A stretch of DNA of 64,000 bases, taken from contig NC_003070.9 of the NCBI RefSeq assembly GCF_000001735.4, positions 2,356,001 through 2,420,000 of the forward strand, read 5' to 3'. The notes beneath the pieces are model-generated. The model saw only the letters and a program-made list of their open reading frames with translations, had not been told where the DNA came from and ran no database searches. Below are positions 52,413 through 56,988 of the stretch, piece after piece; the first letter of the stretch is position 1; each line of letters opens with the position of its first letter. This stretch comes from Arabidopsis thaliana. Lineage: Eukaryota > Streptophyta > Magnoliopsida > Brassicales > Brassicaceae. A program made the translations under genes and the position numbers.

Positions 52413-53065
52413 TCAATAGAAGAAGCCGAGAACCTTGCCTCCAACATTCTTCCTTCTAGCTTCTTCATGGTCCATAATGCCAGCAGATGTAGTCAGCACG
52501 ATGTAACCAAACTGCACAATTTAATAGCTTCAATCCATTAATACCATTAGCGAGCATTAAACAAAGCTACTACTATTGATGTTTCGGGACAGTATGCAAA
52601 GTGATTCAAAAACATTTCCAAATCTTGATCTTATAATTCATAAGGCCACTGTAACTAGAAAGTTTATAAGAAGAGCGAACCTGTCTAGAAGGGAGCAAAC
52701 GGGCAGTCCAACCTTCAATTTCCTTGACACCAACATCAAAACGTGGGCTGATAACACCACACTTGTTCAACCTTCCGTTCAATTCAACGACGATCTTGCC
52801 AGATCTGTGGTCATCGACATACTCAAACTCACCAATGTAACCTGCATTTGATTGGTAACCACATAATTTAAGGAACAACATCCGAGAATCTTAGGAATCT
52901 CTATTATATAAAATCTGGTGGGATAATCATACCGTGCTTCTGCATGACAATCAGAAACTTGATAATCACTTTGGAGGAAGGCCTGATCATGACCTGCCTC
53001 TTGCCTCGTTTCTCAGCATTGTACATGCTCTTGAGAGCATCGTTAAGAACACTGATTCTTACCAT
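52413..53065 (-). CDS. RPS15AA: Cytosolic ribosomal protein S15a (uS8)
   Basis: Three coding exons join in phase: 52933-53065, 52681-52841 and 52413-52511, for 130 residues, the exact family length. The start opens [20 protein letters not shown] and the end is GGKVLGFFY. It is a small-subunit 40S protein that binds helix 20/25 region rRNA. The leader has an intron (acceptor GTTTAG near 53091, donor at about 53478). Upstream are a telo-box (TAGGGTTT, 53554-53561), TATAAAAA on the minus strand (53571-53578) and GGCCCA/TGGGCT site II motifs (about 53641-53651), the standard plant ribosomal-protein promoter set. Confidence 0.97.
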
Positions 53066-53871
53066 CTTGCCTTAAGCTCAATCCTCTACTAAACAAGTCA
53101 AACAACAAACAAGAGCTTGCGTTAAAATAAAATCTGCAAAGCACTAAAAATTTGATACAAATGCACAGATTTACTCATCATGAATATTTATTTCAATGGG
53201 AATAAATCAAGCTTTTAAAATGTAAACCGAAATCACTTATAGAAATTGAAACAAAGGTCTTGTGTCCAGAAAATACACACACAGACAAAATAGAGCTAAG
53301 ACTGACTAATTCGAAAAGCGTTCTTAAGTTCACTATGAAAAGCTCTAAGATCCTAAATTTTCTGATGTGAAGCAAGAGAAAAAAACAAAGTAAAGACCAA
53401 TTAGCAGCTATCTCACACTTCTGAATATTTCTATAAGCAGATCAGATTCTGAACGACTATAGTGAAGATCAATTGTACCTTAAGATTGGGAGCTCGAGAG
53501 GCAAGGTACTCAGTGACGGAGAAAAGCAATTAGAGGAAGAAGAGAAGGTGAGCTAGGGTTTTCTTATCGCTTTTTATACTAGGGAAAATCAAAGAAACCA
53601 ATTGACATGTGTTATGCGCTGCGTCTCAAGCTTCATTTCAGGCCCAATGGGCTTCTTTGTCACGACCATTGAAGCCTATCAAAGCTATAACTTGAACCTG
53701 TAAAAATGAATGATGTTTCTCTCAGCCGTCAGATCTAATTTGAGCATTGATAAATTTAACGAATGAGAAATATACACGTCAATGATCCTCGTGAAGATTT
53801 CTATCCAATAGAATACGTTTGTTCCTTCTCTATAAAATCTAAAAGCCTCGAGTAAACCTATTATCACCATT
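53056..53871. repeat. Direct repeat copy A: RPS15a/H2B back-to-back promoter
   Basis: 816 bp matching 56187-56988 at a constant offset of 3,131 up to 53843, then after a 14-bp gap to 53871. Only two substitutions were found (53261 and 53557). It holds the RPS15a start codon, leader intron and promoter (leftward), plus a histone-type promoter pointing right: ACGTCA near 53776, then CTATAAAATC at 53830-53839. No histone ORF follows this copy, so its rightward half is an orphan. Confidence 0.95.
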
Positions 53872-54351
53872 TAAGCAATGCGAAACAAGACCATTTCGTA
53901 AGCGATACAGGAGATGTCGTGTACTATGAGGCAGATCCAAAACTCAATGGACAAAGAACATGAGGACATACTGCAGTGAACCAGGCAGACAAGTTACATA
54001 AATTCATCTTGGCCCATTCATTATGTTCTTTTTGTTTTGGTGTAAAGCCTTTTCGAGATTAAAAAAGCATTAATTTGTAGAAACCTGTGGTAAAACTCTC
54101 GATCAAATGAAATAATATATGATCAGTAGAATACATTTCATACAAGGATCTTGTTCTTGAGAGCCCAACGACATTATTACGGTGACAACCCAACGCTTTT
54201 AATTTAAATCTACTACTGATGAAAAAAAAGGGCATTATTATTATTATCAGCCAGTTACAATTCAAAACTTAATGACATGGATTGGAAACAACAGGTTGAT
54301 GCTCAAAACTATAGTTACAAGATAAATTACCGTGGTTTATATTGCTTGCCA
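53872..54351. other. Spacer between repeat copy A and PAI1 3' end
   Basis: 480 bases unique within the window; no ORF of note. With PAI1 it forms the 2.3-kb segment (53872-56186) lying between the two promoter repeats. Confidence 0.6.
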
Positions 54352-55833
54352 TTAGTAGTGTACAGAGCGAACTGCAGTTATAAAGGAGCTTATCTTAGAC
54401 TTATCCTTCTGGATACCGTCTGTACCGCAAATACCGCTACTAACATCAATTCCATCAGGTTGAAGGATAGAAAGAGCTTCTGAAACATTTGTTGGATTGA
54501 TTCCCCCAGCTAAGAGCCACCCATTTCTGCTTCTGACGGAAGGCAACTTGAATTGAGCCCAGTTAAATCCGTGTCCACTGCAGCAAATTGTTATGATTGA
54601 ACCTATCACACTCTTGATATTTCAATCACCTCGTGAAAGACAAATGGTTTTATGTACTAGAGTGATTGCTTAAATTTTTCTTCTAAGGAGTACATTACAA
54701 TGCGAAAGAAATTGAAAAGTTGTTCTTGGTACCTCCCACCCGTTGCACTATCCACAAGAATCCAATCAGCAAGATGACAATCCTCTTCAGGAACTTCATT
54801 CAAGAGCTTTCCATCCTGATTTGCATTAAGGACATATATGACTCTCCTCTTGCGTACTAACCTCGAGAAAGCAGCACGCGAACCATTACCATGAAGCTGT
54901 AAGAAACCATAACTATCAACCGTTAATAAAGTTGAGAAAATCACTTTGGTGAGAGCAAAATAAAAATCGATAAGAATGTAGAGAACCTGCACAAGCTCAA
55001 GGTCAGAGGAATCAGCTGCTCTCAGTATCGTGTTCTCATCATCTTCAACAAAAACACCAACAGGTTTGGCCCCACCTTCCCTGGCCACTTTGGAGATATC
55101 CTTTGCGACAGAAAGAGAAATAGATCGTTTTGAATGTGGCCAAATAATCATCCCAATAAAATCGGCACCAGCCTCAACTGCCATAGCTGCATCTCTGGCT
55201 GATGTGATGCCACACATCTTAACCAAAGGTCTATCCTTTCCTCTTTCATCATCCTTAGGAGCTACATTCTCTGTGTTGGAAACACTGCAGCTCAATTTCC
55301 TGTTCTGAGCATACCCGACTCTCGAAAAAGACACCGTTCGATTGCTTAAACCTGGACAAATCCAGTAGGAAAAAAGAGATCAATGGCAAGCTTCAGTAAT
55401 TAGCCGGAAACAAAGAGAATCACACACACAGAAGGTCTAGTGAAATCTGAAGAAAAACTAAAAGTCAAGAAAAGTTACCAGATTTGTAGGTTTTTGAGAA
55501 ATTTAGAGCTCCAAAATGGACATGGAGATCAGTGGATATTCCTGAGGAAAAATAAGAAAGCTTGCTTCATCAACTGATCTTAGAATAAAGCTCACTATTA
55601 ACAAAACAACACAAACTCTGAATTTACAAGACAATTATACAATCGAGATTCCTATTAGTGCATGAACATGTCAAGCAAACAATATAATATGAAAATGGAT
55701 CATCACTAAAGCAGATTGATAGCAGCAAAATCACTACTAGAAAACAAAATCAAGCTCATTGAGTAAATACATCGAACAAGTTATCTGCATTTCTCCCAAT
55801 GAGCTAAACCAGAAGAATAATACCTGTTGACAT
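54352..55833 (-). CDS. PAI1: Phosphoribosylanthranilate isomerase PAI1 (tryptophan synthesis)
   Basis: Five exons join in phase: 55824-55833, 55479-55541, 54987-55351, 54733-54896 and 54352-54577, for 275 residues. PAI (TrpF) converts N-(5'-phosphoribosyl)anthranilate to CdRP, step three of tryptophan synthesis, in the plastid. The first ~65 residues are Ser/Asn-rich and act as a transit peptide. The TIM barrel begins VKMCGITSARDAA with the catalytic Cys; the catalytic Asp is in WILVDSATGG, and the phosphate site is LLAGGINPTNV. The gene is whole here. It lies between two direct repeats of the RPS15a/H2B promoter, one of which reads into it in the sense direction and the other antisense. Arabidopsis has further, almost identical PAI genes elsewhere, known for methylation and silencing in some accessions. 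Confidence 0.96.
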
Positions 55834-56186
55834 CTTAATTTCACTGTTGGAAATCTCAGATGGTATGGGATTTTCTCCCGTCGATGAAATGAGAAGAGGA
55901 GGGTCAGCAGAGACGCGGCGGTTTTACGACTGAAGAAGATCGACAAGAATGGCGGAAAAATAAAAACGAATGTACCAACTTTTTTGTTCGGTGTAATTAA
56001 ACCGAACCAAACCGAATTATTGAATTTTCTGTTTGGTCTTTGTAAAACCGAATTAACCGTTTGCTTTTCGGTTTTGTGAAATTTCCACTACTTTTTCAAG
56101 TCCCGGATGTTCTTTAAATTTTGTTTCTTGATCAATAATTCATAAAGATAGATAATTGATCAAATATTCAAAATAAATATTTAAGT
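55834..56186 (-). promoter_or_regulatory. PAI1 proximal promoter / junction to repeat copy B
   Basis: About 350 bases between the PAI1 start and the copied RPS15a start codon at 56196. They are AT-rich, with ACCGAA-type short repeats at 56000-56070. I see no strong TATA box facing PAI1, which fits transcription starting further upstream in copy B. Confidence 0.5.
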
Positions 56187-56988
56187 TTCTTACCATCTTG
56201 CCTTAAGCTCAATCCTCTACTAAACAAGTCAAACAACAAACAAGAGCTTGCGTTAAAATAAAATCTGCAAAGCACTAAAAATTTGATACAAATGCACAGA
56301 TTTACTCATCATGAATATTTATTTCAATGGGAATAAATCAAGCTTTTAAAATGTAAACCGAAATCACTTATAGAAATTGAAACAAAGGTCTCGTGTCCAG
56401 AAAATACACACACAGACAAAATAGAGCTAAGACTGACTAATTCGAAAAGCGTTCTTAAGTTCACTATGAAAAGCTCTAAGATCCTAAATTTTCTGATGTG
56501 AAGCAAGAGAAAAAAACAAAGTAAAGACCAATTAGCAGCTATCTCACACTTCTGAATATTTCTATAAGCAGATCAGATTCTGAACGACTATAGTGAAGAT
56601 CAATTGTACCTTAAGATTGGGAGCTCGAGAGGCAAGGTACTCAGTGACGGAGAAAAGCAATTAGAGGAAGAAGAGAAGGTGAGCTAGAGTTTTCTTATCG
56701 CTTTTTATACTAGGGAAAATCAAAGAAACCAATTGACATGTGTTATGCGCTGCGTCTCAAGCTTCATTTCAGGCCCAATGGGCTTCTTTGTCACGACCAT
56801 TGAAGCCTATCAAAGCTATAACTTGAACCTGTAAAAATGAATGATGTTTCTCTCAGCCGTCAGATCTAATTTGAGCATTGATAAATTTAACGAATGAGAA
56901 ATATACACGTCAATGATCCTCGTGAAGATTTCTATCCAATAGAATACGTTTGTTCCTTCTCTATAAAATCTAAACTATTATCACCATT
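56187..56988. repeat. Direct repeat copy B: functional H2B promoter plus orphan RPS15a promoter
   Basis: 802 bp matching copy A. It keeps the RPS15a start codon and the next GTAAGAA (56196 leftward), the leader intron and the TATA box on the minus strand, but no RPS15a coding region follows. The rightward TATA box (CTATAAAATC, 56961-56970) serves the H2B gene. The telo-box carries one of only two substitutions (56688, TAGAGTTT). The 14-bp segment present in copy A after the TATA box is absent here. Confidence 0.95.

What the first reader, a model, noticed from the sequence alone, without database searches (positions are those of the whole stretch)
53056..56988. Almost identical ~0.8-kb direct repeats of an RPS15a/H2B bidirectional promoter flank PAI1
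53056-53871 and 56187-56988 match at a constant offset of 3,131 with two substitutions (53261/56392 and 53557/56688) and one 14-bp indel. Each copy carries both the leftward RPS15a leader and promoter and the rightward H2B TATA region. The simplest history is that RPS15a and HTB1 were divergent neighbours sharing this spacer, and a 2.3-kb PAI1 segment (53872-56186) was gained together with duplication of the spacer. At ~0.25% divergence this would be recent, within the species or just before.
Basis: partly seen in the sequence, partly recalled or inferred. Interest (0 to 1): 0.8.

Follow-up and report, generated by a model that had tools for sequence, protein, structure and literature searches.

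The report
Copied gene inside a duplicated promoter
In thale cress a tryptophan-making gene was copied from chromosome 5 into the shared promoter between a ribosomal-protein gene and a histone gene, and the promoter was doubled in the process; the locus is already well studied, and what is added here is a base-by-base account of how it probably arose.

Summary
53056-53871 and 56187-56988 are direct copies: 786 of 788 bases identical, then a 14-bp indel, then 14 identical bases. They flank PAI1 in an Arabidopsis Col-like chromosome 1. The insert is a copy of the PAI2 locus on chromosome 5 (53882-56188; 25 substitutions, one 1-bp indel). It still carries the last 26 codons of the neighbouring desaturase gene, so chromosome 5 was the donor. 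The target was the RPS15a/HTB1 divergent promoter; a paralogous H2B/RPS15a pair on chromosome 3 keeps a single spacer without PAI. The right copy points its RPS15a promoter at PAI1. Published Ws work already reports a heterologous promoter starting about 500 bp upstream and a deletion by recombination between flanking direct repeats (PMC3203196, passages). Donor direction, desaturase remnant, junction fillers and telo-box loss were not seen in the passages I read; two key papers were not held. Best mechanism, inferred: break repair by template switching to chromosome 5 and back. Dating is soft: 0.25% between repeats against 1.1% between PAI1 and PAI2. No outgroup plant genome was available.

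The parts
52416..53065 (-). RPS15a coding region (three coding exons; ribosomal protein S8 family)
   Evidence: matches of the spliced protein at C1:2408416-2408514, 2408633-2408878 and 2408913-2409065; Pfam PF00410, E 5e-22
53056..53871 (.). Left copy of the RPS15a/H2B divergent promoter: native at its RPS15a end; its H2B-type promoter now faces the 3' end of PAI1
53554..53561 (-). Telo-box TAGGGTTT (AAACCCTA on the minus strand) in the left copy; also in the chr3 and chr5 RPS15a promoters, changed in the right copy
   Evidence: the motif name is recalled
53844..53857 (.). 14-bp segment present only in the left copy; aligns with two gaps to desaturase sequence just outside the copied PAI2 segment
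   Evidence: p about 0.001 to 0.004
53872..53881 (.). 10-nt junction filler matching neither neighbour; 8 of 10 bases match donor sequence just inside the copied segment, but longer exact matches exist elsewhere
53882..56188 (-). Segment copied from the PAI2 locus, chr5 C5:1666264-1668567 (25 substitutions, one 1-bp indel)
53882..53963 (+). Remnant of the donor's neighbour: last 26 codons and stop of a fatty-acid desaturase gene (FAD8 by recall)
54355..55833 (-). PAI1 coding exons with introns kept, phosphoribosylanthranilate isomerase
   Evidence: (PF00697, E 4.3e-38)
56140..56196 (-). Predicted 18-codon upstream ORF in the PAI1 leader, starting at the duplicated RPS15a start codon
   Evidence: from sequence only
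56187..56988 (.). Right copy of the divergent promoter: RPS15a side now upstream of PAI1, H2B side native to HTB1
56685..56692 (-). Changed telo-box TAGAGTTT in the right copy (derived state)
57049..57495 (+). HTB1, histone H2B (148 aa)

Best explanation
PAI1 is a DNA-level copy of the PAI2 locus of chromosome 5, placed in the shared promoter of the divergent genes RPS15a and HTB1, with that promoter duplicated on both sides (shown by sequence). Most likely a break or stalled fork in the HTB1 leader was repaired by template switching (inferred). The growing end left the spacer near 53871, copied short scraps of the donor, then 2.3 kb from the desaturase 3' end through PAI2. It returned to the sister or homologous spacer inside codon 4 of RPS15a through a 2-bp match, 816 bp behind its exit, and copied the spacer again into HTB1. 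Both neighbours so kept a complete promoter. PAI1 gained, upstream of about 355 bp of its own 5' flank, the RPS15a promoter, leader and start codon (the exon and intron limits of that leader are inferred from sequence).
For: Repeats. Donor and boundaries. Direction: the chr1 segment begins inside the last 26 codons of a desaturase reading frame that runs on upstream on chr5, and 9.9 kb around the donor hold no spacer sequence. Ancestral target: chr3 has H2B(-) C3:16913617-16914051 and RPS15a(+) from C3:16914891, 839 bp between start codons against 852 bp here; chr5 has the same two genes divergent about 14 kb apart. Introns are kept, so it is not a retrocopy. Filler: the 14-bp segment plus one base aligns to donor sequence next to the entry point (22 of 20,000 random 15-mers do as well against 42 bp of donor; 0.17% against 100 bp, 0.38% with both strands). 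The last six bases before the 10-nt filler, ACCATT, recur in the donor (p 0.026), and the filler matches it 8 of 10 (p 0.044). Promoter: the start expected from the TATA at 56704 lies about 490-500 bp from the PAI boundary, as published for Ws (PMC3203196, passages).
Against: No outgroup genome could be read, so the single-spacer ancestor is inferred from paralogues. The filler matches are short and partly chosen after looking. The 14-bp segment's longest ungapped match (7 bases) has p about 0.02, and it scores 18.5 elsewhere in the 2307-bp PAI1 segment against 19.0 at the donor entry. The 10-nt filler has longer exact matches elsewhere: 8 bases on the other strand of the PAI segment and 7 in the spacer, and its gapped score against the donor has p 0.18. 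The 14 bp might instead be ancestral and lost from the right copy. PAI1/PAI2 divergence exceeds repeat divergence. One survey (PMC3756979, Table 4) lists At1g07780 as the 'parental' gene of PAI3 and in the passages I saw does not flag it as new.
Confidence: 0.55

Rival explanations
1. Patch-type repair of two distant nicks: single-strand breaks on opposite strands 816 bp apart gave long overhangs that were filled in, with a PAI2 copy caught between, so the repeats are a very long target-site duplication.
For: Target-derived direct repeats on both sides of the insert. In rice, tandem duplications ascribed to repair of adjacent nicks are common, and perfect ones over 1 kb, up to 4.9 kb, were seen (PMC7971508, passages).
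Against: In that study the share of tandem duplications falls from 70% to 5% by 200 bp and stays there; 816 bp of separated strands is long. It does not by itself explain donor-like scraps inside the left copy.
Confidence: 0.2
2. Circle model of gene transposition: PAI2 flanked by repeats was excised as a circle and integrated by homology at the target, leaving flanking repeats.
For: Proposed for Arabidopsis genes with flanking direct repeats homologous to the target site (PMC2869330, abstract and passages).
Against: 9.9 kb around the donor hold no sequence like the spacer, and no third full spacer copy was returned from the genome. PAI1 and At1g07780 do not occur in that paper's main text; its supplements were not readable.
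Confidence: 0.06
3. The Ws-type tail-to-tail inverted repeat PAI1-PAI4 came first and Col lost PAI4, so the odd left junction in Col is a deletion scar rather than the original junction.
For: Inverted-repeat forms exist in several accessions (PMC3203196 and PMC13213937, passages); the left junction is the untidy one.
Against: The Col left junction leads straight into the 3' flank of PAI in donor order, and most strains are reported to have three unlinked PAI genes (PMC3203196). No Ws sequence could be read here, so this is weakly tested.
Confidence: 0.14

Closest known systems
PAI1-PAI4 locus of A. thaliana Ws (Bender laboratory; PMC3203196, passages)
   Same: Same locus (At1g07780), heterologous upstream promoter with start about 500 bp from the PAI methylation boundary, flanking direct repeats that recombined to delete the genes.
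   Different: Ws has two PAI genes in an inverted repeat with small RNAs and methylation; this window has one PAI gene. That the heterologous promoter is that of RPS15a (S15a) rests on the sequence here and on recall, not on a passage I read; that the flanking repeats in Ws are these repeats is inference.
Transposed Arabidopsis genes with flanking direct repeats (Woodhouse et al. 2010, PMC2869330, abstract and passages)
   Same: Single gene moved to an unlinked site, flanked by direct repeats that often match genic target sequence.
   Different: Repeats of 30 to 550 bp in the table rows I saw, and a circle model; here 816 bp, no repeat at the donor, and a copy that leaves the donor in place.
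Tandem duplications from repair of adjacent nicks in plants (Vaughn and Bennetzen 2014; Schiml et al. 2016; both seen only as references of PMC7971508)
   Same: Duplication of target sequence at a repair site.
   Different: In rice mostly events up to about 125 bp (PMC7971508); here 816 bp with a 2.3-kb insert from another chromosome between the copies.

Membership tests
PAI1 locus as described for Ws | PAI gene almost identical to PAI2 at an unlinked site | tested here: met
   25 substitutions in 2307 bases against C5:1666264-1668567
PAI1 locus as described for Ws | Heterologous promoter with transcription start about 500 bp upstream of the PAI boundary | tested here: inconclusive
   Position fits: RPS15a TATA at 56704-56709, so a start about 490-500 bp from 56188 is expected; no transcript data were read
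PAI1 locus as described for Ws | Flanking direct repeats | tested here: met
   Repeats here; Ws repeats by PMC3203196
PAI1 locus as described for Ws | Tail-to-tail inverted repeat PAI1-PAI4 | tested here: not met
   Single PAI gene; the only inverted repeat found in 53000-57100 is 20 nt at 80%. Col-type arrangement.
Circle-mediated gene transposition (PMC2869330) | Flanking repeats homologous to the target site | tested here: inconclusive
   Outer repeat ends run into RPS15a and HTB1, and chr3 paralogues show the layout; the orthologous A. lyrata target could not be read
Circle-mediated gene transposition (PMC2869330) | Repeat sequence also at the parental site | tested here: not met
   No spacer match in 9.9 kb around PAI2
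Retrocopy | Introns lost | tested here: not met
   Introns kept, collinear with PAI2

The most novel reading that the evidence does not exclude
One replication-type template switch copied a gene from another chromosome into a bidirectional promoter and re-entered 816 bp behind its exit, so that both neighbours stayed intact and the new gene was born with a housekeeping promoter. The RPS15a part of the copy that now serves PAI1 has begun to decay (telo-box lost), and the orphan H2B-type promoter in the left copy may send antisense RNA into the PAI1 3' end, which would help prime the locus for the small-RNA silencing seen in inverted-repeat accessions.
Probability: 0.2. Interest if true: 0.5.

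Novelty: already known. Interest (0 to 1): 0.33.

Why it matters
The PAI genes are a classic case of an inverted repeat silencing unlinked homologues. Knowing how the founding copy arrived, from which donor and with which promoter, would explain why the locus is transcribed constitutively and why it can delete itself by recombination. If the template-switch reading is right, it is also a clean example of how repair can insert a gene between two working genes without taking the promoter from either.

Tried and rejected
Papers: Melquist and Bender 2003 and Melquist et al. 1999 are not held, so I could not check whether they already describe the duplication at base level; novelty is judged with that gap. 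Eight paper searches were run, and only listed rows were seen: for example 20 of 42, 15 of 543 (none of the 15 rows counts pai1-pai4), 10 of 967. AT1G07780 with 'duplication' and 'Arabidopsis' found 2 papers; no paper held two of AT1G07770, AT1G07790 and AT1G07780. Of the seven papers opened I saw passages only, plus an outline and abstract for PMC3756979.

Outgroups: by their descriptions the collections hold no plant genomes. A distant search of the plasmids with 53056-57100 found nothing.

Rejected: retrocopy (introns kept); circle integration (no spacer at the donor); PAI1 as donor of PAI2 (the desaturase frame is cut off on chr1 and runs on upstream on chr5). PAI2/PAI3 homology does not extend past PAI1/PAI3 homology, so PAI3 gave no extra test of direction. 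The 14-bp indel has no alignment ambiguity (read from the sequences), which favours neither insertion nor deletion. PAI3 was used to polarise PAI1/PAI2 differences only inside 54186-55912, where it is homologous; 4 of 25 substitutions outside were dropped.

Mended numbers: one search used the BLAST count of 28 mismatches (3 of which lie beyond the insert's end), and its cluster test, labelled 19/2225, really used 18 of 2225. One search repeats both with 25 of 2307 and 17 of 2227, and only those are quoted.
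Full report
What was checked. The window lies in a 119.66-Mb, 7-contig genome at contig C1 2356001-2420000. Gene content and the locus names used in the papers identify it as Arabidopsis thaliana chromosome 1, Col-type (inference). RPS15a (Pfam PF00410), PAI1 (PF00697) and histone H2B (PF00125) were identified by family search.

Ends of the repeat. The repeat begins at 53056, the first base of codon 4 of RPS15a. It covers the start codon, leader and promoter of that gene and the H2B-type promoter, up to position 53871 or 56988 in the HTB1 leader. 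The left end of the left copy and the right end of the right copy run on into their own genes, so the two inner ends are the new joints.

The insert. 53882-56188 is a copy of C5:1666264-1668567, the PAI2 locus, with 25 substitutions and one 1-bp indel, introns included. PAI1 and PAI2 proteins differ at 1 of the 274 codons compared. At the right joint PAI2 homology and the repeat overlap by two bases (TT, 56187-56188). At the left joint 10 bases (53872-53881) belong to neither. The insert starts inside a reading frame next to PAI2 that belongs to a fatty-acid desaturase (PF00487; FAD8 by recall), and carries its last 26 codons and stop (53883-53963). On chromosome 5 that frame runs on upstream into desaturase sequence. 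The copy therefore went from chromosome 5 to chromosome 1. PAI3 (C1:10298340-10300012) is a more distant copy, 89-90% identical over its main match.

The ancestral target. Outgroup plants could not be read, but the genome holds its own paralogues. On C3 an H2B gene on the minus strand (16913617-16914051) and an RPS15a gene on the plus strand (from 16914891) are divergent, with 839 bp between start codons and no PAI. On C5 RPS15a (24112502-24113084, minus) and H2B (24127206-24127655, plus) are divergent about 14 kb apart. The other RPS15a-like and H2B-like matches are not such close pairs. From the right copy the spacer here is 852 bp. The chr3 spacer shares a telo-box, GGCCCA-type motifs and an ATCCTCGT...CCAAT block on the H2B side.

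Which copy changed. At 53261/56392 the C3 fragment of the leader has T, like the left copy. At 53557/56688 the left copy keeps the telo-box TAGGGTTT, found also in the chr3 and chr5 RPS15a promoters, and the right copy has TAGAGTTT. Both substitutions are thus best read as changes in the right copy, the one whose RPS15a side now serves PAI1. Two sites are few; this fits relaxed constraint but does not show it.

Mechanism. The left copy's extra 14 bases, with the preceding A, align over 15 bases with two gaps to donor sequence directly before the start of PAI2 homology. Random window 15-mers do as well in 22 of 20,000 trials against 42 bp of donor, in 0.17% against 100 bp and in 0.38% against both strands. 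Against this, the same 15-mer scores almost as high (18.5 against 19.0) somewhere in the 2307-bp PAI1 segment, and its longest exact match has p about 0.02. The last six bases before the 10-nt filler (ACCATT) recur in the donor (p 0.026) and the filler matches donor 8 of 10 ungapped (p 0.044; 0.18 with the gapped score). But the filler also has an 8-base exact match on the other strand of the PAI segment and a 7-base one in the spacer, so its source is open. With the 2-bp overlap at the other joint and the back-step of 816 bp, these signs fit break repair with template switching better than circle integration, because the donor locus has no spacer sequence. Patch repair of distant nicks remains possible.

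Function. PAI1 is read leftward and lies downstream of the right copy's RPS15a promoter. The TATA at 56704-56709 puts the expected start about 490-500 bp from the PAI boundary. [quoted passage not shown] The naming of the promoter as S15a in the 2003 paper is my recall. PMC8841432 (passages) reports opposite transcript trends for PAI1 and PAI2 under iron deficiency, which fits different promoters but does not test them. The duplicated RPS15a start codon would open an 18-codon upstream ORF in the PAI1 leader (56196-56140). Since PAI1 is said to be the main enzyme source in Ws (PMC3203196), this ORF would have to be tolerated, bypassed by splicing, or followed by reinitiation; this is untested. 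The left copy's H2B-type promoter now faces the desaturase remnant and the 3' end of PAI1; whether it fires is unknown.

Age. Repeats differ by 2 of 788, PAI1 and PAI2 by 25 of 2307 (Fisher p 0.027). Eight of the 25 lie within 80 bp (55504-55583; P 0.00015 for such a cluster); without them the contrast is 17 of 2227 (p 0.19). Of the 21 substitutions where PAI3 is homologous, 10 are changes on PAI1, 10 on PAI2 and 1 cannot be placed; the one indel falls on PAI1. With a mutation rate of 7e-9 (recalled), the two figures give about 0.18 million generations (95% range 0.02-0.65) and 0.78 million (0.50-1.14); the ranges overlap. Both point after the split from A. lyrata (5-10 million years as given in PMC3756979), unless conversion has reset them. 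PMC3756979 lists At1g07780 as parental to PAI3, which neither confirms nor excludes a recent origin of PAI1.

Verdict. Flanking repeats and a captured promoter at this locus are already in print, so the interest is moderate to low.

Noticed in passing
C3:14317348-14317639 (L003, L010): A 79% identical fragment of the RPS15a leader region lies on chromosome 3, and the RPS15a protein search gave no coding match near it.
   Followed up: partly
window 55504-55583: Eight of 25 PAI1/PAI2 substitutions and the only indel fall in 80 bp across the end of the second coding exon and the first intron; changes lie on both lineages, so it is not one conversion from PAI3.
   Followed up: partly
window 53830-53900: Orphan H2B-type promoter with TATA at 53831 pointing rightward into a desaturase remnant and the PAI1 3' end; possible antisense RNA.
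   Followed up: no
window 56140-56196: The duplicated RPS15a start codon would open an 18-codon upstream ORF in the PAI1 leader.
   Followed up: partly
Genome-contig loci L019-L022: H2B-like matches of 79-88% in records titled as bacterial metagenome bins; perhaps eukaryotic contamination.
   Followed up: no
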